Positions 39,354 through 51,155 of a stretch of 64,000 nt of DNA are shown piece by piece (the stretch's first letter is position 1; every line of letters starts with the position of its first letter). Source of the DNA: Amaricoccus solimangrovi (GTDB lineage Bacteria > Pseudomonadota > Alphaproteobacteria > Rhodobacterales > Rhodobacteraceae); assembly GCF_006385685.1 (NCBI RefSeq), contig NZ_VFRP01000012.1, positions 62,001 to 126,000 on the forward strand, given 5' to 3'. The notes beneath the pieces are model-generated. The model was not told where the DNA came from. It saw only the letters and a list, made by a program, of their open reading frames with translations, and searched no databases. A program made the position numbers and the translations under genes.

Positions 39354-39428
39354 GCCCGGGTAGCTCAGGGGTAGAGCAGCGGATTGAAAATCCGCGTGTC
39401 GGTGGTTCAAATCCGCCCCCGGGCACCA
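39354..39428 (+). tRNA. tRNA-Phe (GAA)
   Basis: The 75-nt cloverleaf is complete: acceptor GCCCGGG/CCCGGGC, D-stem GCTC/GAGC, anticodon stem GCGGA/TCCGC with loop TTGAAAA (anticodon GAA), T-stem GGTGG/CCGCC with TTCAAAT, then discriminator A and encoded CCA. It marks the left border of an accessory segment. Confidence 0.97.
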
Positions 39429-39956
39429 TTGAAATCAATGAGTTAGAGCGTTCCACAGTGCTTCCTTCCGGCACTGACCTGTCCGCTGGGGCGCTCCGGG
39501 GGCGCTTATGGCTGTTGCTTGCGACTCGGGCCTGCTCCGCCCCGACGACGAGGACAACGGGGAAGGACAGCGAGGACCTTGGGAGGAGCGGCCGCGCCGC
39601 TTGCGTTGGCGTTTACAACCCGCGGATCACCTCGCAGCCGCTCCTCCCACGGTCTGAGCGGCTGCGCGACCCTATTACAGGGCCCGGCCTGGATCAGGAT
39701 GCAAACCGTAGGCCGCGCTCGGCGTCATGCTCGAAGAAGCGCCGCCACCTCAAGCCTTTCCGAGGCCTGTCAAATGCGGCAGCGCCTCGCGCTAGCCGGC
39801 CTCGGAGGTCGCGGCCTTCATCGGAGCGCGCAAGGCTGCCCGCGCCGCCGGCTAGGTGCGTGGTCGGCGCCCCTCCGGTCGGGCCTTCGCAGCCCGGAGG
39901 CTGACCGGAGCGAAGGCGCCCACTCCTCCGTCGGCTCGAAGATTCCCCAGAACCCC
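39429..39956. other. Degenerate DNA after tRNA-Phe, no recognisable gene
   Basis: This stretch of about 530 bp has several overlapping open frames but none with recognisable protein content, and its base composition looks less codon-biased than the flanking genes. It lies between tRNA-Phe and a broken primase gene, so it is probably eroded mobile DNA. No integrase remnant or tRNA 3'-end repeat was seen. Confidence 0.5.
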
Positions 39957-40470
39957 ATGACCAATCTTCGCACCCGTCCCGAAAAGTTCGCCGCAAGTAC
40001 TCTGGCTTTCGCCAAGTCGGGCATGCACGTCTTTCCCTGCTTCCGGACCAAGGAACCGATGACCGTAACGGGTACAAGGACGCCACCACCTGCCCCCACG
40101 CGATCGAGCAATGGGCCGCCACCCTCGATGACCCTCAGATCGGCGTCGCCTGCGCGGCGAGCGGACTCGTGGTTGTCGACATCGATGATGTCGAGGCTTG
40201 GAGGCAGTTTCTGTCTGACCATGGGCTGCCTGTTCCTGAAACGGCCCGAGTGATCACGCCCAGCGGCGGGATGCACTTCTGCTTTAGAGCCGGACCCGGC
40301 GCGAGATATGGAGGAAAGCTCTGTGTCGGCGTCGGATACGTCCTTGCCCCCTTCGGTCGCTTGGTCGAGGCGAGCGGGATGCGAAGGTACCTGCCGGTGG
40401 GTCCCGGGGAGCGGCCTGCCGGCCGACGCGCCGGTCTGGCTCGAGACGACCGACGCCCGCCCTGGCATGA
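39957..40470 (+). pseudogene. Frameshifted bifunctional Prim-Pol primase/polymerase relic
   Basis: The first frame (from ATG 39957) reads LAFAKSGMHVFPCFRTKEP. Near 40065 the match jumps to another frame with NGYKDATTCPHAIEQW, GLVVVDIDDVEAWRQFL and ITPSGGMHFCFRAGPGA, consistent with loss of one base. Near 40400 it shifts again to GLPADAPVWL. These are the conserved parts of the N-terminal Prim-Pol domain found in prophage and plasmid replication primases. The helicase half is absent. It is a non-functional remnant of a mobile element beside tRNA-Phe. Confidence 0.8.
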
Positions 40471-40707
40471 GCCGTGCCGCGCCCATGGACGGCCGATCCC
40501 CGATCTCGCGGAGGGAGGGCGCCGTCGGGTGAACGATATGGGGCCGACCGTTTTTCGTGCGTGTGCGAAGCCGGCGGGCGGGGCGCCATCGGCCCGGCCG
40601 CGACCCCGGCGCAGGTACAAAACGTGAAAATCGTGGATGTTCAACGGGCGCTTCGTTGATTATCAATCGGATACCTGACCGTTGCCACCTGGGATGCGCC
40701 CGCGACC
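40471..40707. other. Remnant DNA upstream of the SbcD-like operon
   Basis: These 237 bp hold no recognisable gene. A local AT-richer patch at about 40615-40685 (GTGAAAATCGTGGATGTTCA, then TTGATTATCAATCGGATACC) is the likely promoter area of the phosphoesterase operon. Exact -35/-10 elements could not be assigned. Confidence 0.4.
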
Positions 40708-41970
40708 TTGACCTTCCGATTCGTTCATACCGCCGACCTTCACCTCGACTCCCCGCTCGTCGCCCTGTCGCTCCGGGATCCGGAGCTTGCCCGGCAGGTG
40801 GGCGTCGCGACGCGCGCGGCCTTTTCCGCCACGGTCGAGCTCTGCCTCGCCGAGGGAGTCGACGCGCTCCTGATCGCGGGCGACCTCTGGGATGGCGGGC
40901 AGGTCTCGGTGAAGGCGCCGCGGTTCCTGAAGCGGGAGCTGACCCGGCTTCACGACGCCGGGATCCGCGTCTTCGTCATCCGGGGCAACCACGACGCGCT
41001 GTCGAAGGTGACGCGGGAGCTCGATCCGCCGCCCAATACCACGATCTTCGGCGCGCGCGCGGCGACCGGGCGGTTCGAGGCCGGCGGGCGCGCCATCGCC
41101 GTTCACGGGCTGAGCTTCGCCGAGGCGCGGGCGCCGGAGAGCGCGCTGCCGGCCTATCCGCCGCCCGAGCCGGGCGCCTTCAACATCGGGATGATGCACA
41201 CGAGCCTGAACGGCAGCGCGGGCCACGACGTCTACGCGCCCTGCCGCCTCGCGGATCTCGAGGCGCATGGCTACGACTACTGGGCGCTCGGGCATATCCA
41301 CCGGCGGAGCGAGCATCGCGGGCGCTGCGCCGTGGTCATGCCGGGCATCCCGCAGGGCCGCGACATCGGCGAGGCGGGGCACCGTTCGGTCACGCTCGTC
41401 ACGCTCCATGACGACGGCCGGCTCGACATCGCCGAGCGGGTCGTCGCCTCGGTCCGGTTCGAGCGGCGGGAGGTCGATCTCGACGGCGTCGGGGACTGGA
41501 GCGAGGCGGTCGCCCGTCTCGATCACGCGCTGCGCGCGCTCGCGGCGGAGCCGCGCGCGGAGGCGCGTCTGGTCGCGCGTCCGCGGCTGCGGGGCGCGAC
41601 GCCGCTCGCCTGGCGCATCGCACGCGACCTCGACGCGCTGACGGAGGAGGCGCGCGCCACCGCCGGGCTTCTCGACGGGCTCTCGATCGACCGGATCGAG
41701 AACGCGACGGACGGCGGCGCGGAGGGGCTGGCGGGCACCGGCGCGCTGCCGGACGAGCTGCTGCGGATCGTCGAGGAGGAACTGCCGGGCGATCCCGCGC
41801 TCTCCGCCGCGCTCGCGGATCTCGCGCGGGACTTCCAGGGAAACCTGCCCGGGGAGGCGCGCGCGGTGTTCGGGACCGACGAGGCGAGCTTCGCCGCGGC
41901 CTGTTCGGAGCTCCTGGACGAGGGCACGCGCCTCGTTCTCGCCCGGCTGATCGATCCGAGGGAGGGCTGA
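40708..41970 (+). CDS. SbcD/Mre11-like metallophosphoesterase (YhaO-type), TTG start
   Basis: The 420-residue protein carries the calcineurin-like nuclease motifs: TADLHLD (residues 8-14), GDLWD (58-62), RGNHDAL (92-98), MMHTSLNGSAGH and WALGHIHRR. The C-terminal half is a helical capping region. Family members make SbcCD/Mre11-type DNA exonuclease/endonuclease heads that need a partner ATPase, here the next gene. Start is TTG at 40708 in frame with TFRFVHTAD; no closer ATG exists. The TGA stop shares a base with the ATG of the next gene. It lies just beyond the mobile-element relic, so it belongs to the accessory island. Confidence 0.9.
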   Translation: MTFRFVHTADLHLDSPLVALSLRDPELARQVGVATRAAFSATVELCLAEGVDALLIAGDLWDGGQVSVKAPRFLKRELTRLHDAGIRVFVIRGNHDALSKVTRELDPPPNTTIFGARAATGRFEAGGRAIAVHGLSFAEARAPESALPAYPPPEPGAFNIGMMHTSLNGSAGHDVYAPCRLADLEAHGYDYWALGHIHRRSEHRGRCAVVMPGIPQGRDIGEAGHRSVTLVTLHDDGRLDIAERVVASVRFERREVDLDGVGDWSEAVARLDHALRALAAEPRAEARLVARPRLRGATPLAWRIARDLDALTEEARATAGLLDGLSIDRIENATDGGAEGLAGTGALPDELLRIVEEELPGDPALSAALADLARDFQGNLPGEARAVFGTDEASFAAACSELLDEGTRLVLARLIDPREG

Positions 41971-44900
41971 TGCGTCTCGACCGGCTCGCGCTCACGCGCT
42001 ACGGGCGCTTCACCGACACGGAACTGGTCTTCGAGCCGCCGGCGGCGGGGGAGGCGGATCTGCATGTCGTCTTCGGGCCGAACGAGGCGGGAAAGTCCAC
42101 GCTCTTCGCGGGCTGGCTCGACCTGCTCTTCGGGATCCCGCAGCGCTGCGGCTACGAATTCCTGCATCCCGGCCCGACGCTGCGCCTCGGCGCGGAACTC
42201 TCCCACGCGGGCGGCGGGCTCGTGCTCTCCCGGCTGAAGCGGGCGGCGCCGAGCCTGCGCGACGCCCATGACGCGCCGATCCCGGAGGCGGTGCTCCAGT
42301 CGGTGCTGGGCGGGCTCACGCGGGAGGGCTACGCGGCGATGTTCTCGCTCGACGACGACACGCTGGAGAAGGGCGGCGACGGGATCCTCGCGAGCAACGG
42401 CGATCTCGGCGAGATGCTGTTCTCGGCGAGCGCGGGGCTCGCGGGGCTGGGCGCGCGGCTGGGCGAGATCCGGTCGGAACTCGACGCGTTCCATCGCCCG
42501 GGCGGCCGCAAGGGCGAGCTGCGGGAGGCCAAGGCGCGGCTCGCCGAGATCGAGCGCGAGCGCCGCGAGATCGACGTCTCGGCGCCGGCGAGCCAGCGGC
42601 TCGCGCGCGAGGCGCGGGAGGCGGAGGCCGCCTGGAGGCGGGCGCGCGCGGAGGAGGACGCGGCGGCGGAGGCGCTCGGGCGGCTGCGCGAACTCCGCGC
42701 GCTCGGTCCCGAGCGCGACCGGCTCGCGCGGCTGGAGGCGGAGCTCGCCCCGCTGGCCGACCTTCCCGGGGCGGGGGAGGAGGAGGAACGCCGGTTCCAG
42801 CGGCTGAGGACGGCGGAGATCGAACTCGCCTCACGGATCGCGGACCGGGGCGAACGGATCGCGCGGTGGCGGGAGGCGCTCGACCGGGTCGTGCCCGATC
42901 CCGCCGTGCTCGCCGCGGCGGAGGCGATCGCGGCGACGGAGGCGGCGCGGCCCGCGTACGAGACCGCGCTGGACGATCTCTCCCGCCGCCGCCGGGAGGC
43001 CGAGCAGGAGGAAGGCGGGATCCGCGAGACCCTGGCCCGGCTCGGCCGGCCGGGGGCCGAGGCCGAGGCGCTTCTGCTCGACCCCGCCCGGCTCGCCCGG
43101 CTCCGCCAGCTGCTGGGCCGCCGGTCGGGCGTCGAGACGGCGCGCGATCACGCGCGGCGCGAGGCGGAGGCGGCGCGCGCGCGGCTGGCCGGGACCGAGC
43201 GGCGCGAGGGCGATCCGGGGCCGGAGACCGAGCCCGGCGCGCTCGCCGCGCTGATGGCCCGGCTCCGCGCCGAGGATCCGGCGGCGGAGGTGGCACGGGC
43301 CGGCGAAGCCCGCGACGCGGCGCGCGCGCGCCTCGCCGCCGCGCTCGGCGCGCTGGAGCCGTGGCGGGGTGACGCGGAGAGCCTCGCGGCGCTGCCGGTC
43401 CCGCCGGTCCGGTGTCTCGAGTCCTGGGAGACGGAGGCCGAGGCGCTCCGGCGGGGCTGCGCGGAGGCCGGGCAGGAGCATGCCCTTCGCCGCGCCGAAC
43501 GCGACCGTGCCGAGGCGGAGGACGAGGAGCGGCGGGATCGGGGCGGCGCGCCGGGGCTGGCGCTCGAAGATGCGGCGGAGGCGAGGGGCCGGCGTGAGCG
43601 TGCCTGGACCGCGCATCGCGCCGCGCTGACGCCGGAGAGCGCCGAGGCATTCGAGGCGGCGATGCGGATGGACGACCAGATCGCCGCGCTGCTCGCGGAG
43701 GCGCTGGCCGAGGCGCGGCGGGCGGGCGCGGCGGCGGGAGAGCTCGCGCGGCTGCGCGCCGCCGAGGAGGAGGCCCGTTCCCGCGTGGAGGAGGCGCGGT
43801 CGCGGCGCGCGGCGCATGAGGCGGAGGTGGCCCAGGCCTCCTGCGCGCTCGGGATCGGCGCCGCGCCGCTCGGCGATCTTCGGGCGTGGCTCGTGGCACG
43901 GACCGCCGCGCTCGCGGAGCGCGCGGCGCTCCGCGCGGCGGAGGACGCGCTCACCCGCGCCGAGGCGGCGCGGGACGCCGCGGCGGAGGCGCTCCGCGCG
44001 CTGCTCGGCGCTTCCGGGGGAGAATTCGAGGCGCTTCGGGCCGAGGCGGAGGGCCGGCTCGACCACGCGGCGGAGCGGCGGGAAATCCGGCGGCGGCTGG
44101 CCGAGCTCCGCCATGAACTCGAGGAACGCACGGCGGCCGCGGCGCGGGCCGAGGCGGAGGCCGAGGCCTGGCAGGCGGACTGGACCGGGGCCGCGCGCGG
44201 GAGTCTTCTCGCGGAGGTTCCGCCGGAGGGGGCGGGCGAGATGCTCGACCTGCTCGACGCGCTGGGGCGGGCCAGCGCCCGGCGCCTCGGGCTGATGGAC
44301 CGGATCGCCAAGATGGAGGCCAATGTCACCCGGTTCCGCGACGGGGTGGCGGGGGTTTTCGCCGCGCTCGATCTCCCGTCCGAAATGCCCTGGCAGAGCA
44401 TCCCCGCCCGGCTCCGCGCCGCCGAGGCGGCGGAGGCCGAGCACCGGCGCCTGACGGCGGAGCTGGGGAAGGCGGAGCGGGAACAGGCGGACGACGCGCG
44501 CCTCGCCGCGGAGAACGCGGCGGCGCGGGGCGAATTCGGCGCGGCGCTCGGCGCGGGGGCGGAGGAGGGGGGTGAGCTGGAGACGCGTCTCGCCGACGCG
44601 CTCCGCGCGAGCCGGCTCCGGCGCGAGATCGCCGAGACCCTGGCGGCGCTCGCCGCGCATCCCGCGCCCTCCGGGCCGACGGATCCGGACGGGCTCGCCG
44701 CGCAAGAGGCCGAGGCCGCTTCGGATCTCGAACTGCGCCGGAGCGAGACGCAGGCGTGTTTCGCGGCGCTGAGCGAGGCGCGCCGGAAGGTCGAGGCCAT
44801 CGGCGCCGACGAGGCCGTCGCCAGGCTCGACGCGGAGCGGGAGAACCTGCTGAACGGGCTTCGCGTCGAGGCCCGCGCCCATCTCGCCGCGCGCTTCGGC

Positions 44901-45353
44901 CTGGCCGCGCTCGAGACGGGGCTTCGACGCTACCGTGACCAGCACCGGAGCGCGATGCTGGAGCGAGCCTCGGACGCGTTCCGGCAGCTGAGCCGGGGCG
45001 CCTATTCCGGGCTCGCCGCCGTGCCGGAGGGGGGGCGCGAGACGCTGGTGGCGCTGGCGCCCAGCGGCGCGAAACGGGCGGTGGACCTCTCGAAGGGAAC
45101 CCGGTTCCAGCTTTATCTCGCGCTCCGGATCGCGGGCTATCACGAGCTCGCGCGGAGCCGGCCGACGGTGCCCTTCATCGCCGACGACATCATGGAGACC
45201 TTCGACGACGACCGCGCCGCGGAGGCCTTCGCGCTGCTCGGCGACATGTCGCGCCTCGGACAGGTCATCTACCTGACCCATCACCAGCATCTCTGCGACA
45301 TCGCGCGCGCCGCGTGCCCGCGATGCAAATTCATCGACCTGCGCGCATGCTGA
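41970..45353 (+). CDS. Rad50/SbcC/YhaN-like ATPase
   Basis: The 1127-residue SMC-like protein has a Walker A at residues 36-44 (GPNEAGKST), LHPGPTLRLGAELSH nearby, and a long Ala/Glu/Arg coiled-coil from about residue 170 to 1000. The C-terminal lobe has FRQLSRGAYSGLAAVPEGG, LSKGTRFQLYLALRIAGY (ABC signature region) and a Walker B/D-loop segment PFIADDIMETFDDDRAAEAF, followed by the H-loop YLTHHQHL. No CxxC zinc hook is visible, which places it nearer YhaN than classical Rad50. It should form a heads-and-coil complex with the adjacent phosphoesterase and act on DNA ends. Confidence 0.9.
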   Translation: MRLDRLALTRYGRFTDTELVFEPPAAGEADLHVVFGPNEAGKSTLFAGWLDLLFGIPQRCGYEFLHPGPTLRLGAELSHAGGGLVLSRLKRAAPSLRDAHDAPIPEAVLQSVLGGLTREGYAAMFSLDDDTLEKGGDGILASNGDLGEMLFSASAGLAGLGARLGEIRSELDAFHRPGGRKGELREAKARLAEIERERREIDVSAPASQRLAREAREAEAAWRRARAEEDAAAEALGRLRELRALGPERDRLARLEAELAPLADLPGAGEEEERRFQRLRTAEIELASRIADRGERIARWREALDRVVPDPAVLAAAEAIAATEAARPAYETALDDLSRRRREAEQEEGGIRETLARLGRPGAEAEALLLDPARLARLRQLLGRRSGVETARDHARREAEAARARLAGTERREGDPGPETEPGALAALMARLRAEDPAAEVARAGEARDAARARLAAALGALEPWRGDAESLAALPVPPVRCLESWETEAEALRRGCAEAGQEHALRRAERDRAEAEDEERRDRGGAPGLALEDAAEARGRRERAWTAHRAALTPESAEAFEAAMRMDDQIAALLAEALAEARRAGAAAGELARLRAAEEEARSRVEEARSRRAAHEAEVAQASCALGIGAAPLGDLRAWLVARTAALAERAALRAAEDALTRAEAARDAAAEALRALLGASGGEFEALRAEAEGRLDHAAERREIRRRLAELRHELEERTAAAARAEAEAEAWQADWTGAARGSLLAEVPPEGAGEMLDLLDALGRASARRLGLMDRIAKMEANVTRFRDGVAGVFAALDLPSEMPWQSIPARLRAAEAAEAEHRRLTAELGKAEREQADDARLAAENAAARGEFGAALGAGAEEGGELETRLADALRASRLRREIAETLAALAAHPAPSGPTDPDGLAAQEAEAASDLELRRSETQACFAALSEARRKVEAIGADEAVARLDAERENLLNGLRVEARAHLAARFGLAALETGLRRYRDQHRSAMLERASDAFRQLSRGAYSGLAAVPEGGRETLVALAPSGAKRAVDLSKGTRFQLYLALRIAGYHELARSRPTVPFIADDIMETFDDDRAAEAFALLGDMSRLGQVIYLTHHQHLCDIARAACPRCKFIDLRAC

Positions 45354-45372
45354 GCGCGCATCGGGGGCTATC

Positions 45373-48300
45373 ATGACCGACGCGATCCCTTCCTCCGCCC
45401 CGGCGGACGACGCTCCGGAACATCGGCTCGCGGTCCGGGCGAGGGTCCGGACCAGGGTGAACTTCGCCGCCGCGCAGAACGGCGTCTCGGTGCTGCGCGA
45501 GCTCGCGATCGTCAACACGGGCGAGGCCGCGGCCGAGGCGGTCACGCTCACGCTCTCCGCCTCGCCCGGGATCCTGCGGGAGAAGACCTGGCGCCTCGAC
45601 CGCGTCGCCCCGGGGGGCGAGATCGCGCTCGGCGATCTGGAAACCCCGCTCGACACCACCATCCTCGGCGGTCTCGACGAGGCCGAGATCGGCCGGCTCG
45701 ACTTCCGCGTGACGGTGGACGGCGCCACGGTGGAGGCGAGCCGGCATCCGATCGAACTGCTGGCGCGGGACGAATGGGGCGGACTCGCCGAGCAGGACAG
45801 CATCCTCGCGGCCTTCGTCTCGCCGAACCAGCCGCTCGTCGCGCGGCTCCTGCGCGACGCGTCGCTGCTGCTGGAGCGCGCGGGCCATTCCGGGGCGATG
45901 GAGGGCTACCAGTCGAAGGACCCGCTCCGGGTCTGGATGATGGCGGGCGCGATCTGGTCGGCCGCGACCGGCCTCGGGCTGAGCTACGCCGTGCCGCCGG
46001 CCTCCTTCGAGAGCGCGGGGCAGAAGGTCCGCGATCCGGAGCGGATCGGCGCGGAAGGGCTCGCGACCTGCCTCGACGCGTCGCTCCTGCTGGCCGCGGC
46101 TTTCGAGGCGGCCGGGCTCAACACGGCGATCCTCTTCGCGCGGGAACACGCCTGGGTCGGCGTCTGGCTGACGCCGCGCGATTTCGGCCGGCTGGTGGAG
46201 CCCGATGTCGTCGCGGTGCGCAAGGCGGCGACGGCGCGCGAATTCGTGCCGCTCGAGACGACGCTGCTGACGAAGCGGCCGAGCGTCGGTTTCGAGGCGG
46301 CGGTGGCCGCCGGGCGCGACCGGCTCTCGGAGGCGCGCGAGGCGGAATTCATCCAGGCCGTCGACATCAACCGCGCCCGCGCCGCCCGCGTGCGCCCGCT
46401 CGCCTCGCATCGGCTCCGCGAGGAGGAGGCGGGGGCGGAGGAGGAGAGCGTCGCGCCCGCGGCCCTGCCGCGGCCGCTCGACCTCGGGCAGCTTCCCGGC
46501 GACGTGATCGACGAGGCGCCGACGACGCCGAAGGGCCGGATCGAGCGCTGGCAGCGCAAGCTCCTCGACCTCTCGCTCGCCAACCGCCTGCTGAACTTCC
46601 GGGAGACGAAGCTCGCGGTGCCGATGATCTGTCCCGACCTGCCGCGGCTCGAGGACCGGCTCGCGGGTGGCGAGGCCTTCCGGCTGCTCGCGCTCAGCGA
46701 CGAGCGGGCGCTGGCCGGGCGCGATCTGCCCGCGGAGGAGGCGCGCGGGATCGAGGCGGATCTGGCCCGCGAGGCGCTGGAGCGGGGCCAGATCGCGACG
46801 CCGCTGACGGGCAGGGAGATGCTGGTCCGCCTGACCGAGCTCTACCGCAAGGCGCGCGCGGACGCGCAGGAGGGCGGGACCAACACGCTCTTCCTCGCCG
46901 TGGGCTTCCTGCGCTGGAAGCGCGACGCCGCCGAGGAGCGCGTCTACCGCGCGCCGCTCCTGCTGCTGCCGGTGAAGCTCGAGCGCCGTTCGGCGCGTTC
47001 GGAATTCCGCCTCTCGCTGCTCGAGGACGAGGCGCGCGTCAACGCCACGCTGCTCGAACTGCTCAAGCGGGATTTCGAGCTGCGCTTGCCGGAACTCGAG
47101 GGGGCGCTGCCGGCGGATGGCAACGGCCTCGACATTCCCCGCATCCTCGAGATCTTCCGCCGGCGCGTGCGCGACGCGGCCGGGTTCGAGGTGGTCGAGG
47201 AATGCGCGCTCTCGACCTTCTCCTTCGCGAAATACCTGATGTGGAAGGATCTGGTCGACCGTGTCGACAGCCTGCGCGAAAGCCGGCTCGTGCGCCATCT
47301 CGTCGACAACCCGACCGAGGCCTTCGAGGGCGGCGGGACGGGAATGCCGCGCGCCGCCGACATCGACCACCGGCTGGCGCCGGGCGACCTGCTCACCCCG
47401 CTCCCGGCCGACAGTTCGCAGCTCTCGGCCGTGCTGGCGGCGGCGGAGGGGCGGGATTTCGTGCTGATCGGCCCGCCCGGAACCGGCAAGAGCCAGACCA
47501 TCACCAACATCATCGCCGACCAGCTCGGCCGCGGCAGGACGGTGCTCTTCGTCGCCGAGAAGGCCGCCGCGCTCGACGTGGTGCAGCGCAGGCTCGCGCG
47601 GGCGGGGCTCGGCGAGGCGGTGCTGGAACTGCATTCGAACAAGGCCGACCGCAAGGCGGTGCTGGCCCAGCTCGGCCGCTCGTGGGAGCGCGCCGCCGGG
47701 CAGGGCACGCGGGAATGGCGCCGCGCGACCGAGGATCTGCGCGCCGCGCGCGATCGGCTCAACACCTATGTCGCCGCGCTGCATCGCCCGGGCAGCCAGG
47801 GGTTCAGCATCTTCGAGGCCATCGGCCAGGCGACCGGAGCGCCCGCGCCGTTCCGGCTGTCCTTCGCCGGCCGGGACTGCCATGACGAGGAAAGCTGGTC
47901 GCGCCTGCGCGCCCTCGCGGAGGAGGTGGGCCAGCGGCGCCGGATCGTCGCGGAGCTCGGGGAGGCGGGGCCGCTCGGCCTCGTCGCGCCGGGCGAATGG
48001 TCCTACGGCTGGCAGGAGCGGTTTCTCGCCGCCCTCGGCGCCCTGCGCGACTCGCTGCGCGCCGAGCACGCCGCGCGGCACGCGCTCGCGGATCGCCTCG
48101 GCTGCCCGCCGGGCGAGGCGGACCGGCCCGAGGTGGCGGAGGTGCTCGCGCTCCTGCCCGCCGCGCGGCTCGGCCGCCGGGATCTCGCGGCGGCGGCGCT
48201 CGCCGATCCCGAGGGCGGGCGGGCCGCGCTGGACGAACTCGCCGCCGCCTGCCGGGACTGCGTGGCGCAACGGGCGATGCTCTCCGCCCGCTATTCCGAC

Positions 48301-50841
48301 GAGGCGATCCTCGCCCTGCCGCTCGACGCGCTCGAACAGGAGTGGCGGGAGGCGCTCGGGAAGGTCTGGCCGCTCGCGGGGCTCGCCCAGGGCAAGGTCC
48401 GCAAGCGGCTCCAGGCGCATGCCCAGTCCGGCGCGGCGGATCCGGAGCGCGACCTTCCGGCGCTGCGGCGGCTCGCGCGCGCGCTGACGCGCATCGCCGC
48501 CTCGCCGCTCGCGGGGATCCCGGGCTTCGCGGGGGAGGCGAGCGATCCCGACACGCTCGCGGCGCAACTCGACGCCGCCGAGGCCTATCTGCGGCTCGAG
48601 GCGCGGTTCGCCGCGATCGGCGCGCCGGAGGACTGGCTCCAACTCCTGCGCGGCAACCTGACGCTGCGCGATGGCGGCGTGCTGGAACCCGAACTGCGCG
48701 CCCTGGCCGCGGCCGGGGAGCGTCTGCGGGCGGATCTCGCGCGGTTCGCGGCGGCGGGGGGGCGGCCGGGGGCGCGTCCCGACCGGCTCGCGGCGGAGCT
48801 CGACGCGCTCGAGGCGGCGAAGGGTCATCTCGCCGACTGGATGAAATGGCTGGCGGTCCGGGAGCGGGCGGTCGCGGGCGGGCTCGAACCGCTCGTGGAC
48901 GCGCTGGAGGCGGGGGAGCCGGTCGCGGACGCCGCCCTCGCCTTCGAACGGGCCTATTGCGCCTGGTGGCTTCCGCTCGCGCTCGATTCCGAGCCGGCGC
49001 TGCGGGGCTTCGCCTCTTGGGAGCACGAGGCGCTGATCGCGCGGTTCCGGGAACTCGACGACGCGATGACCGGGATGGCGGCCGCGGAGGCGATGCGCCG
49101 CCTCGGCAACGACCTGCCCGCCCGCGATTCGGTGCCGCGCAATTCGGAACTCGGCACGCTGCGCCACCAGATCGGCCTGCAACGCCCCTCGGTCTCGATC
49201 CGCAACCTCCTCGCGCAGATGCCGACCACCTTCGGCAAGCTCGCGCCCTGCGTGCTGATGTCGCCGCTCTCGATCGCGCAGTACCTGCCGGCGGGTCAGG
49301 CCTGTTTCGACCTCGTGATCTTCGACGAGGCCTCGCAGATCTCGACCTGGGACGCGATCGGCGCGATCGCGCGCGGCCGGCAGGCGATCATCGTCGGCGA
49401 CCCGAGGCAGCTGCCGCCGACCAACTTCTTCGGCCGCGCGGATTCCGACGAGGACGATCCCGACATCGCCGAGGTGGAGAAGGACATGCCCTCGATCCTC
49501 GACGAGGTGGCCGCCGCCGGCATTCCCACGCACCGGCTCAACTGGCACTACCGCAGCCGCGACGAGTCGCTGATCGCCTTCTCGAACCACCTCTATTACG
49601 ACGACCGCCTCGTCACCTTCCCCTCGCCCGACGCCACCCACCGCGCGGTGCGGCTGGTCCCGGTCGCGGGCACCTATCAGCGCGGGACGGCCCGGACCAA
49701 TCCCGAGGAGGCGCGCGCGATCGTCGCGATGATCCGCGCGCGCCTCACGGAGTGGGCGCGGCTGCCGGAGAAGGAGCGGCCCACGCTCGGCGTCATCACC
49801 TTCAACGCGCAGCAGCAGAGCCTCATCCTCGACCTGCTCGACGCGGAGCGGAAGGCCGACGACACGCTCGAATGGTTCTTCTCCGACGAGCGGGAAGAGC
49901 CGGTGATCGTGAAGAATCTCGAGAACATCCAGGGTGACGAGCGCGACGTGATGCTGTTCTCGATCACCTTCGGCCCCGACCAGGCGGGCAAGACCACGAT
50001 GAACTTCGGCGCGCTGAACGGCGACGGGGGCGAGCGGCGCCTCAATGTCGCCGTCACCCGCGCGCGGGCCGAACTGCATGTCTTCAGCTCGCTCGGCGCC
50101 GAGCAGATCGATCTCGCGCGCACCGGCGCGCGCGGCGTGAGGGACCTCCGGACCTTCCTCGATTTCGCCGCGCGCGGGCCCGTCGCGCTCGCCGCGCGGG
50201 ACGAGGGCTCGCTCGGGGGCGTCGAGTCGCCGTTCGAACAGGCGGTGCGCGACGCGCTCGCGGACCGGGGCTGGGAGGCGCGCAGCCAGATCGGCGTCTC
50301 GGGCTTCCGGATCGACCTCGGGCTGCGCCATCCCGACCATGCCGGGGTCTGGCTCGCCGGCGTCGAATGCGATGGCGCGCGCTACCACGCCGCGGCCACC
50401 GCGCGCGACCGCGACCGGATCCGCCAGGCGGTGCTGGAGGGGCTCGGCTGGACGATCCTGCGCGTCTGGTCGACCGACTGGTTCCGCGATCCCGTCCGGG
50501 TGGCGAACGGGCTCGACGCCCGGCTGCGCGAGATCCTTGAGGCCGACCGCCGGCGCCGCGCCGCCGCGGCCGAGGCCGAGGCCGGTGAACCGGCGCAGGA
50601 CGCCGCGCCGGCGCCGCCGGAGGAGGAAGCCGTGGCGCCCGACGCCGCGGCGCCGGACTCCGCCGCCGAGATCCCGGCGCCCGCGCCGCCCCGCGACGAG
50701 CCCGCGGGCGCGCCGGAGTTCGGTGAGCTGAGGGCAGAGGCGGGGGACGTGGAGACCGAGCCCGACCCTCCCTTCGAAGCCGGCTACACGCCGCGTCTCG
50801 CGGCGCTCGTCGCGCGGTCGTGGCGATCGGGCGACCCGTGA
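45373..50841 (+). CDS. DUF4011 protein: transglutaminase-like, SF1 helicase and PD-(D/E)xK nuclease (Hhe-like)
   Basis: The product has 1822 residues. Residues 1-150 are beta-rich. About 150-290 look transglutaminase-like: GLATCLDASLLLAAAFEAAG supplies the Cys and REHAWVGVWL the His. About 388-690 are DUF4011 (WQRKLLDLSLANRLLNFRE). The SF1 helicase has Walker A GPPGTGKS at 700-707, a long helical insert, Walker B FDEASQIS near 1317, VGDPRQLPPTNFF near 1341 and NVAVTRARAELHVF. Residues 1620-1720 are a Vsr/MTES_1575-like nuclease (FEQAV, FRIDLGL, VECDGARYH). A Pro/Glu/Ala tail follows. DUF4011-helicase-Vsr proteins are known as predicted or tested anti-phage effectors. The start lies 19 bp after the ATPase gene. 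Confidence 0.9.
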   Translation: MTDAIPSSAPADDAPEHRLAVRARVRTRVNFAAAQNGVSVLRELAIVNTGEAAAEAVTLTLSASPGILREKTWRLDRVAPGGEIALGDLETPLDTTILGGLDEAEIGRLDFRVTVDGATVEASRHPIELLARDEWGGLAEQDSILAAFVSPNQPLVARLLRDASLLLERAGHSGAMEGYQSKDPLRVWMMAGAIWSAATGLGLSYAVPPASFESAGQKVRDPERIGAEGLATCLDASLLLAAAFEAAGLNTAILFAREHAWVGVWLTPRDFGRLVEPDVVAVRKAATAREFVPLETTLLTKRPSVGFEAAVAAGRDRLSEAREAEFIQAVDINRARAARVRPLASHRLREEEAGAEEESVAPAALPRPLDLGQLPGDVIDEAPTTPKGRIERWQRKLLDLSLANRLLNFRETKLAVPMICPDLPRLEDRLAGGEAFRLLALSDERALAGRDLPAEEARGIEADLAREALERGQIATPLTGREMLVRLTELYRKARADAQEGGTNTLFLAVGFLRWKRDAAEERVYRAPLLLLPVKLERRSARSEFRLSLLEDEARVNATLLELLKRDFELRLPELEGALPADGNGLDIPRILEIFRRRVRDAAGFEVVEECALSTFSFAKYLMWKDLVDRVDSLRESRLVRHLVDNPTEAFEGGGTGMPRAADIDHRLAPGDLLTPLPADSSQLSAVLAAAEGRDFVLIGPPGTGKSQTITNIIADQLGRGRTVLFVAEKAAALDVVQRRLARAGLGEAVLELHSNKADRKAVLAQLGRSWERAAGQGTREWRRATEDLRAARDRLNTYVAALHRPGSQGFSIFEAIGQATGAPAPFRLSFAGRDCHDEESWSRLRALAEEVGQRRRIVAELGEAGPLGLVAPGEWSYGWQERFLAALGALRDSLRAEHAARHALADRLGCPPGEADRPEVAEVLALLPAARLGRRDLAAAALADPEGGRAALDELAAACRDCVAQRAMLSARYSDEAILALPLDALEQEWREALGKVWPLAGLAQGKVRKRLQAHAQSGAADPERDLPALRRLARALTRIAASPLAGIPGFAGEASDPDTLAAQLDAAEAYLRLEARFAAIGAPEDWLQLLRGNLTLRDGGVLEPELRALAAAGERLRADLARFAAAGGRPGARPDRLAAELDALEAAKGHLADWMKWLAVRERAVAGGLEPLVDALEAGEPVADAALAFERAYCAWWLPLALDSEPALRGFASWEHEALIARFRELDDAMTGMAAAEAMRRLGNDLPARDSVPRNSELGTLRHQIGLQRPSVSIRNLLAQMPTTFGKLAPCVLMSPLSIAQYLPAGQACFDLVIFDEASQISTWDAIGAIARGRQAIIVGDPRQLPPTNFFGRADSDEDDPDIAEVEKDMPSILDEVAAAGIPTHRLNWHYRSRDESLIAFSNHLYYDDRLVTFPSPDATHRAVRLVPVAGTYQRGTARTNPEEARAIVAMIRARLTEWARLPEKERPTLGVITFNAQQQSLILDLLDAERKADDTLEWFFSDEREEPVIVKNLENIQGDERDVMLFSITFGPDQAGKTTMNFGALNGDGGERRLNVAVTRARAELHVFSSLGAEQIDLARTGARGVRDLRTFLDFAARGPVALAARDEGSLGGVESPFEQAVRDALADRGWEARSQIGVSGFRIDLGLRHPDHAGVWLAGVECDGARYHAAATARDRDRIRQAVLEGLGWTILRVWSTDWFRDPVRVANGLDARLREILEADRRRRAAAAEAEAGEPAQDAAPAPPEEEAVAPDAAAPDSAAEIPAPAPPRDEPAGAPEFGELRAEAGDVETEPDPPFEAGYTPRLAALVARSWRSGDP

Positions 50842-51078: not shown

Positions 51079-51155
51079 TGGCGGACTGGGGAGGATTCGA
51101 ACCCCCGACCCCTTGATTCGTAGTCAAGTGCTCTATCCAACTGAGCTACCAATCC
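51079..51155 (-). tRNA. tRNA-Arg (ACG)
   Basis: The 77-nt cloverleaf on the minus strand has acceptor GGATTGG/CCAGTCC, D-stem GCTC/GAGC, anticodon stem CTTGA/TCAAG with loop CTACGAA (anticodon ACG), T-arm GGGGG-TTCGAAT-CCTCC, discriminator G and encoded CCA. It closes the accessory segment on the right. Confidence 0.97.

What the first reader, a model, noticed from the sequence alone, without database searches (positions are those of the whole stretch)
40708..50841. Three-gene Mre11-like/Rad50-like/DUF4011-helicase-nuclease operon: candidate new defence system
Seen: SbcD-like nuclease and SbcC/YhaN-like ATPase genes (sharing one base), then a giant DUF4011 protein 19 bp later, all plus strand, flanked by tRNAs and a mobile-element relic. 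Known: DUF4011-helicase-Vsr proteins act in phage defence (Hhe type), and Mre11/Rad50-like pairs sense DNA ends. The combination of both in one operon is, to my knowledge, not a standard named system; this is from memory.
Basis: partly seen in the sequence, partly recalled or inferred. Interest (0 to 1): 0.87.

Follow-up and report, generated by a model that had tools for sequence, protein, structure and literature searches.

The report
Known phage-defence gene with repair-like partners
A known bacterial anti-phage protein here sits in one operon with a pair of DNA-end-processing proteins, a partnership that recurs in several layouts in other bacteria and may mean that they work together.

Summary
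In detail: nuclease 40708-41970, YhaN-like ATPase 41970-45353 (one shared base), 1,822-aa DUF4011 protein 45373-50841 (19-bp gap), plus strand, motifs intact. The DUF4011 protein is a curated anti-phage protein, ProA (NCBIfam NF058533, 2008.8 bits, cut-off 1500; PADLOC PDC-S37), not Hhe. The window's Mre11/Rad50-like pair passes no NCBIfam cut-off. New: the linkage recurs. A pair (whole, cut or decayed) flanks ProA in 21 of 80 best chromosomal relatives and 13 of 23 plasmid regions viewed, in four layouts and with different pair types; on the ProA tree the label needs 12 changes, at least 10 forced. It is optional: 59 of 80 relatives show no pair, 38 of 44 same-order genomes with the nuclease have no DUF4011 gene, and decayed pairs lie beside full-length ProA. 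A class-level sample shows linkage only in the window. ProA also has an unannotated N-terminus: an Ig-like domain plus a transglutaminase/PNGase-like domain with a near-invariant Cys-His-Glu triad. Best reading: ProA is the effector and the pair an accessory DNA-end processor. Joint function is inferred from gene order; nothing was tested at the bench, and the original ProA report could not be read.

The parts
40708..41970 (+). Mre11/SbcD-like metallophosphoesterase (YhaO-like), 420 aa, TTG start
   Evidence: PF00149 9.1e-15; closest solved structures by sequence Mre11 and SbcD; D10, H12, D59, N94, H95, D96, H196, H198 conserved in an alignment of 63
41970..45353 (+). Rad50/SbcC-like ATPase (YhaN-like), 1127 aa
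   Evidence: PF13514 3.3e-64; weak Rad50 matches, E 0.007-0.0095; Walker A aa 36-44, LSKG aa 1040, DD aa 1072-1073
45373..50841 (+). ProA: DUF4011 helicase-nuclease, 1822 aa
   Evidence: NCBIfam NF058533 2008.8 bits, cut-off 1500; PADLOC PDC-S37 1120 bits
45448..45762 (+). ProA Ig-like domain (aa 26-130)
45778..46395 (+). ProA transglutaminase/PNGase-like domain (aa 136-341) with C233, H259, E295
46558..47064 (+). ProA DUF4011 domain (aa 396-564)
   Evidence: PF13195 1.8e-45
47413..50088 (+). ProA SF1 helicase: Walker A aa 700-707, DEA aa 1318, GDPRQLPP aa 1342, TRAR aa 1562
   Evidence: PF13604, PF13086, PF13087; motifs
50233..50526 (+). ProA MTES_1575 (Vsr-like) nuclease: E1622, D1648, E1665, D1667
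   Evidence: PF18741 2.5e-32; E1622 and D1667 in all rows with a letter there, D1648 Ala in 3 rows, E1665 Ile in 1
39354..39428 (+). tRNA-Phe(GAA) left of the region
   Evidence: ARAGORN
39957..40627 (+). broken Prim-Pol gene (mobile-element relic)
   Evidence: PF09250 3.7e-5 for the piece 40169-40624; the upstream piece 39957-40250 had no hit and is included by my reading of its sequence
51079..51155 (-). tRNA-Arg(ACG) right of the region
   Evidence: ARAGORN

Best explanation
An anti-phage locus built of two modules. (1) ProA, an already catalogued anti-phage protein: Ig-like + transglutaminase-like + DUF4011 + SF1 helicase + Vsr-like nuclease; it unwinds and cuts invading DNA (inferred from domains). 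(2) An optional Mre11/Rad50-like pair, found beside ProA again and again, that acts with it: the ATP-gated nuclease complex recognises or opens DNA ends, hairpins or blocked ends of phage or plasmid DNA and so produces or flags the substrate that ProA loads on and destroys. Shown here: gene layout, family membership of ProA, motifs, recurrent linkage. Inferred: co-transcription, cooperation, direction of flow (pair first, ProA second), target.
For: ProA equivalog score far above cut-off. Neighbour clusters of ProA (90 loci): nuclease in 19 (17 of the 80 loci, 0 of 8 from the class sample, and L144 and L170, which had been fetched because of their nuclease), ATPase 9 (a second ATPase cluster 3), then a generic ABC-transporter cluster 7. 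In 21 of the 80 best relatives an Mre11/Rad50-like pair, whole, cut by the contig end or decayed, lies in the flank: 18 by tblastn plus L027, L029, L043 by HMM; rough expectation for the window's pair type 0.03 of 80 (assuming 4-Mb genomes). Layouts: pair then ProA 14, divergent 4, convergent 2, ProA then pair 1. Plasmids: intact pair beside ProA in 10 of 23 regions viewed, decayed in 3, with 2-50 bp between ProA and the nuclease in five tandem cases. Pair types differ: the window's, a shorter one (373-374 + 874-882 aa; L029, L207, L211, L215, L217), and SbcCD-like (L043). On the ProA tree the label needs 12 changes, at least 10 forced by starred branches (88 rows); on the pair tree 8 (64 rows). 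Order sample: of 5 genomes other than the window's with both nuclease and any DUF4011 gene, 2 have them within 10 kb (chance about 2.5e-4 under random placement). Class sample co-occurrence: 6 genomes against 1.3 expected (p = 5e-4; without the window 0.002), though some of those ProA hits are partial.
Against: 59 of 80 ProA relatives show no pair (6 marked as too short to tell, others short on one side), nor do 10 of 23 plasmid regions. 38 of 44 order genomes with the nuclease have no DUF4011 gene. In the class sample only the window's own genome is linked (1 of 6 with both hits). Order-sample co-occurrence is weak when only ProA-type copies count (5 genomes against 2.0 expected, p = 0.03; without the window p = 0.08). 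Decayed pairs beside full-length ProA (L010, L017, L210, L214, L218) suggest that ProA does not need the pair. Other defence genes also adjoin ProA, so linkage could be island clustering. L043's pair may be the housekeeping SbcCD.
Confidence: 0.48

Rival explanations
1. Two independent defence or repair modules that share a niche: both are mobile, are gathered in defence islands and end up adjacent; neighbouring genes may be co-transcribed but do not cooperate.
For: Each occurs often without the other; other defence genes adjoin ProA: a PDC-S06 match (L212; similar proteins in L204, L216, L224) and ThiF/multiubiquitin-type operons. In L018 and L043 the pair is convergent with ProA.
Against: No other family recurred next to ProA as often as the pair; gaps of 2-50 bp in tandem plasmid cases and 19 bp in the window; divergent shared upstream regions; different pair types; at least 10 forced changes. 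In the order sample a pair adjoins 4 of 13 ProA-type but 0 of 7 other DUF4011 copies (Fisher p = 0.15: suggestive only).
Confidence: 0.34
2. The pair is a host-side safeguard rather than part of the attack: it repairs or trims host DNA damaged by ProA.
For: Mre11/Rad50-type proteins are repair enzymes (established knowledge); divergent layouts could place both under one trigger.
Against: Five loci keep full-length ProA with a decayed pair, and most relatives lack a pair; ProA without a safeguard should be costly under this reading.
Confidence: 0.1
3. An ordinary repair operon with no defence role.
For: The nuclease and ATPase families are repair-like, and the pair without ProA shows no constant neighbour.
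Against: ProA is a curated anti-phage equivalog; in the genus it is in 1 of 11 genomes and the nuclease in 2 of 11, the window's included, as for accessory genes; plasmid carriage.
Confidence: 0.08

Closest known systems
ProA, NCBIfam NF058533 'anti-phage protein ProA' / PADLOC PDC-S37 (probably the DefenseFinder system Prometheus; that link is my inference)
   Same: Match to profile positions 1-1784 of 1903, far above the curated cut-off.
   Different: My scans of both libraries gave the Mre11/Rad50-like partners no ProA-system name. The original description is not held, so I do not know whether partners were defined there.
Hhe (NF042953), DUF4011 anti-phage protein
   Same: Shares the helicase and nuclease half (best stretch aa 1149-1719).
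   Different: 794.1 bits against cut-off 2000. Seven of 20 order-sample DUF4011 copies lack ProA's N-terminal region by tblastn; whether these are Hhe was not tested.
Bacillus YhaO-YhaN (recalled) / PF13514 YhaN-type ATPases
   Same: Same two-gene order (recalled) and ATPase domain; annotation of relatives reads 'YhaN family protein' and 'DNA repair exonuclease'.
   Different: Here joined by position to a defence gene.
SbcCD / Mre11-Rad50
   Same: Phosphoesterase motifs; Rad50-like ATPase ends.
   Different: Below the SbcD cut-off; no central zinc hook.
Lamassu and Wadjet (SMC-like defence systems)
   Same: An SMC/Rad50-like ATPase in a defence setting (PMC10586767, passages seen).
   Different: No LmuA, LmuB or Wadjet (Jet) hit for the window's three proteins at E 0.001; here the candidate effector is a helicase-nuclease.

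Membership tests
ProA (NF058533) | score over curated cut-off 1500 | tested here: met
   2008.8 bits, profile 1-1784 of 1903
Hhe (NF042953) | score over curated cut-off 2000 | tested here: not met
   794.1 bits
Prometheus (DefenseFinder) | gene content as defined by its authors | not testable with these tools
   The name is seen only in passages that list systems; no description held
SbcD (TIGR00619) | score over curated cut-off 77.65 | tested here: not met
   52.4 bits
SbcC/Rad50 | central CxxC zinc hook | tested here: not met
   only CxxC is CPRC at aa 1116 of 1127
YhaN-type ATPase (PF13514) | score over gathering cut-off 22 | tested here: met
   216.7 bits
Transglutaminase-like superfamily (ProA aa 136-341) | fold | tested here: met
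Transglutaminase-like superfamily (ProA aa 136-341) | catalytic Cys-His-Asp/Glu triad | tested here: inconclusive
   C233, H259, E295 together in 85 of 88 rows; their geometry against a solved active site was not checked
Lamassu | LmuA and LmuB | tested here: not met
   no hit for the window's proteins; weak LmuB hits only for ATPases of other loci

The most novel reading that the evidence does not exclude
A composite immune system not yet named: a DNA-end-sensing Mre11/Rad50-like complex hands foreign ends to ProA, or licenses it, and ProA combines helicase and nuclease with a transglutaminase-like peptidase or Rad4/XPC-like DNA-distortion sensor domain, so that end sensing, a protein-processing or lesion-sensing switch and DNA destruction are joined.
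Probability: 0.3. Interest if true: 0.78.

Novelty: new variant of a known kind. Interest (0 to 1): 0.57.

Why it matters
It would add an Mre11/Rad50-like end-processing partner to a widespread anti-phage protein whose trigger I found no account of in the papers held, and suggests repeated recruitment of repair complexes into immunity. The N-terminal transglutaminase-like domain, not annotated by Pfam at its cut-offs, gives three residues for a direct test of how ProA is switched on.

Tried and rejected
Hhe-type reading rejected by the cut-off. Canonical SbcCD rejected for the window. Integration at tRNA-Phe: no second copy of the tRNA end in the window beyond one 15-base match (one mismatch allowed) at 45704. 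RsmI is in 9 and the ExbB-like gene in 7 of the 10 other same-genus genomes, on different contigs in the 7 that have both; no tRNA in the 11 pieces fetched; so no empty site could be shown. Constant partner of pairs without ProA: the largest neighbour cluster held 6 of 52 loci, scattered. Literature: DUF4011 occurs in 3 papers; ten searches (terms on DUF4011, ProA, Prometheus, Mre11/SbcCD with defence words, YhaN/YhaO, PDC-S37) listed no paper that I could recognise, from title and abstract start, as describing this combination; two papers looked up by DOI are not held. Passages only were seen of PMC10250203 (a DUF4011 gene flanks a defence hotspot in every P. aeruginosa isolate; no mention of Mre11, SbcC or ProA), PMC12390725, PMC13356809, PMC12629846, PMC12846349, PMC11706625 (an instrument, not a system), PMC10586767, PMC12447246; PMC13092281 holds none of the terms sought. 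DUF6197 topped the Pfam table by members for ProA's N-terminus (9 of 40, best E 0.0022; window member 13.8 bits against cut-off 24.6); set aside for the fold result. The PDB sequence search of the N-terminus gave one hit at E 0.29. Foldseek on the whole N-terminus matched mainly the Ig-like part or overlaid both domains badly (rmsd about 17); the second domain was therefore folded alone.

Rows dropped or chosen: the pair tree left out L010, L011, L017 (broken) and loci under score limits, so L027, L029, L043 too. The ProA tree left out copies under 1500 aa except L170, and 6 loci on short contigs were not counted in its label; its 24 linked rows include L144 and L170, which were fetched because of their nuclease. 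Of the 23 plasmid regions, L203-L205 were opened because both hit lists named the plasmid; the others were taken from the ProA list, rhizobial ones first, 17 of the 25 alphaproteobacterial records among the 60 listed and 6 of the 35 others.

Full report
What is there. The three ORFs are real and tightly packed. Domain searches give a calcineurin-like phosphoesterase, a YhaN-type AAA_27 ATPase, and a DUF4011-SF1 helicase-MTES_1575 nuclease protein. PADLOC names it PDC-S37. The window's nuclease and ATPase pass no curated NCBIfam cut-off and have only weak PADLOC hits. GC of the three genes is 0.74-0.77 in a window of 0.73. In the genus, ProA is in 1 of 11 and the nuclease in 2 of 11 genomes, the window's included, so the locus looks acquired.

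Does the trio recur? The best 80 of 558 ProA-encoding stretches in genome contigs were fetched with up to 10 kb flanks. tblastn with the window's nuclease and ATPase found the pair in 18 of 80; an HMM of the pair added L027, L029 and L043, 21 of 80 in all. Both genes look whole in 16; L008 and L012 are cut by the contig end; L010 has an interrupted ATPase, L011 a split nuclease, L017 only a fused remnant. Layout: pair-then-ProA in 14, divergent in L027 (with a further ORF between), L030, L045, L050, convergent in L018 and L043, ProA-then-pair in L029. L043's nuclease passes the SbcD cut-off (158.4 against 77.65), so that pair may be the housekeeping one.

Plasmids. tblastn against PLSDB gave 68 records for ProA (E 1e-100) and 203 for the ATPase (E 1e-20). 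I viewed 23 of the 68 ProA regions, not a random sample (see Tried and rejected). An intact pair adjoins ProA in 10 (L203, L204, L205, L207, L211, L212, L213, L215, L217, L224), a decayed one in 3 (L210, L214, L218), none in 10. Several are near relatives of one another. In L203 ProA itself is annotated as two pieces. L224 (Paraburkholderia) carries the association outside Alphaproteobacteria; so does L027, titled Oceanospirillaceae. Tandem cases have 2 bp (L207, L217), 13 bp (L211, L215) or 50 bp (L203) between ProA stop and nuclease start.

Independence. On a FastTree of 88 ProA rows the label linked/unlinked needs 12 changes, at least 10 forced by starred branches, against a shuffled mean of 21. 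On a quick IQ-TREE of 64 pairs it needs 8. The label thus changed often, by gain or loss; the counts cannot say which. Linked pairs fall in well separated clades: L030/L045, L050, L064, L018/L170, L144 and the window's clade. Different pair types are beside ProA: the shorter ATPases reach the PF13514 gathering score of 22 only marginally or not (L207 22.2, L029 21.8 bits) and resemble the window's type poorly. None of the other pairs scanned passes an NCBIfam cut-off except L043's nuclease.

Samples not chosen by ProA similarity. Order sample: nuclease in 44 of 292 genomes, DUF4011 in 19 of 292 (20 copies). Of the 20 copies, 13 (window included; L233 and L242 only in part) show ProA's N-terminal region and 7 do not. 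An Mre11/Rad50-like pair adjoins 4 of 13 ProA-type copies (G000, G373, G433; G208 with a distant pair whose HMM scores resemble L043's, not family-scanned) and 0 of 7 others (Fisher p = 0.15). Five genomes hold both the window's pair type and a ProA-type copy; three of them are linked, two without the window. Class sample: ProA query 19 of 190, nuclease 13 of 190, ATPase 11 of 190; nuclease and ProA-query hits together in 6 genomes (1.3 expected, p = 5e-4), linked only in the window's; some of these 6 ProA hits are partial or distant. Genome size was not controlled for in either co-occurrence test.

Optional, not obligate. 38 of 44 order genomes with the nuclease have no DUF4011 gene, and the 52 pair loci examined show no constant neighbour. 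Decayed pairs lie beside full-length ProA. The Pseudomonas, planctomycete and chlorobial ProA loci showed no pair in the flanks held. ProA therefore probably works alone in many hosts, and the pair is an add-on.

How it most likely works. From family knowledge, Mre11/Rad50-like complexes bind and cut DNA ends, hairpins and blocked ends under ATP control, and SF1 helicase-nucleases need a loading site. The simplest joint scheme: the pair opens or marks foreign ends, ProA loads, unwinds and cuts; the transglutaminase-like domain gates ProA. Each step after the gene layout is inference. The strongest rival is co-location of independent modules, for which the frequent separation of the two is good evidence; tight spacing in both orders, divergent layouts and recurrence with unlike pair types speak against it.

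Novelty. ProA is known. I found no name for the ProA + Mre11/Rad50-like association in the scans of NCBIfam 20.0 and PADLOC 2.0.0 nor in the listings of ten paper searches; the original report of ProA/Prometheus is not held, so prior description cannot be excluded. The letter A in ProA may hint at further named components; this is open.

Noticed in passing
window 46069-46257 (ProA aa 233-295): Unannotated transglutaminase/PNGase-like domain with near-invariant Cys-His-Glu in ProA; its region was not found by tblastn in 7 of 20 DUF4011 copies of the order sample.
   Followed up: yes
L207, L210, L213, L218: Operons annotated with ThiF plus multiubiquitin, E2 or Mov34/JAB-like genes (ubiquitin-like defence type, recalled) stand near ProA on rhizobial plasmids.
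   Followed up: no
L212:13899-16544; also L204, L216, L224: A PDC-S06-type AAA ATPase (PADLOC candidate; PADLOC scan on L212 only, the others by tblastn similarity) near ProA in 4 of 23 plasmid regions.
   Followed up: partly
L054, L057, L058, L065, L071: Gene cluster beside ProA that I read from its sequence as a type I restriction-modification methylase (recalled, no family scan).
   Followed up: no
L039, L040, L042: ProA of three planctomycetes has Ala in place of the nuclease aspartate D1648 but keeps E1622, E1665 and D1667.
   Followed up: no
L010, L017, L210, L214, L218: Pair genes decayed by insertion or deletion beside full-length ProA.
   Followed up: partly
L203 (Bosea plasmid) and G034:C4:46137-51338: ProA copies that look broken: two annotated pieces in L203, one in-frame stop in G034.
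   Followed up: no
window 39957-40627: Broken Prim-Pol gene next to tRNA-Phe; the stretch 39430-40700 has lower GC (0.668) than its surroundings.
   Followed up: partly
G484:C5:271001-272170: A same-genus genome holds a relative of the nuclease (42% identity) but no ProA hit.
   Followed up: no
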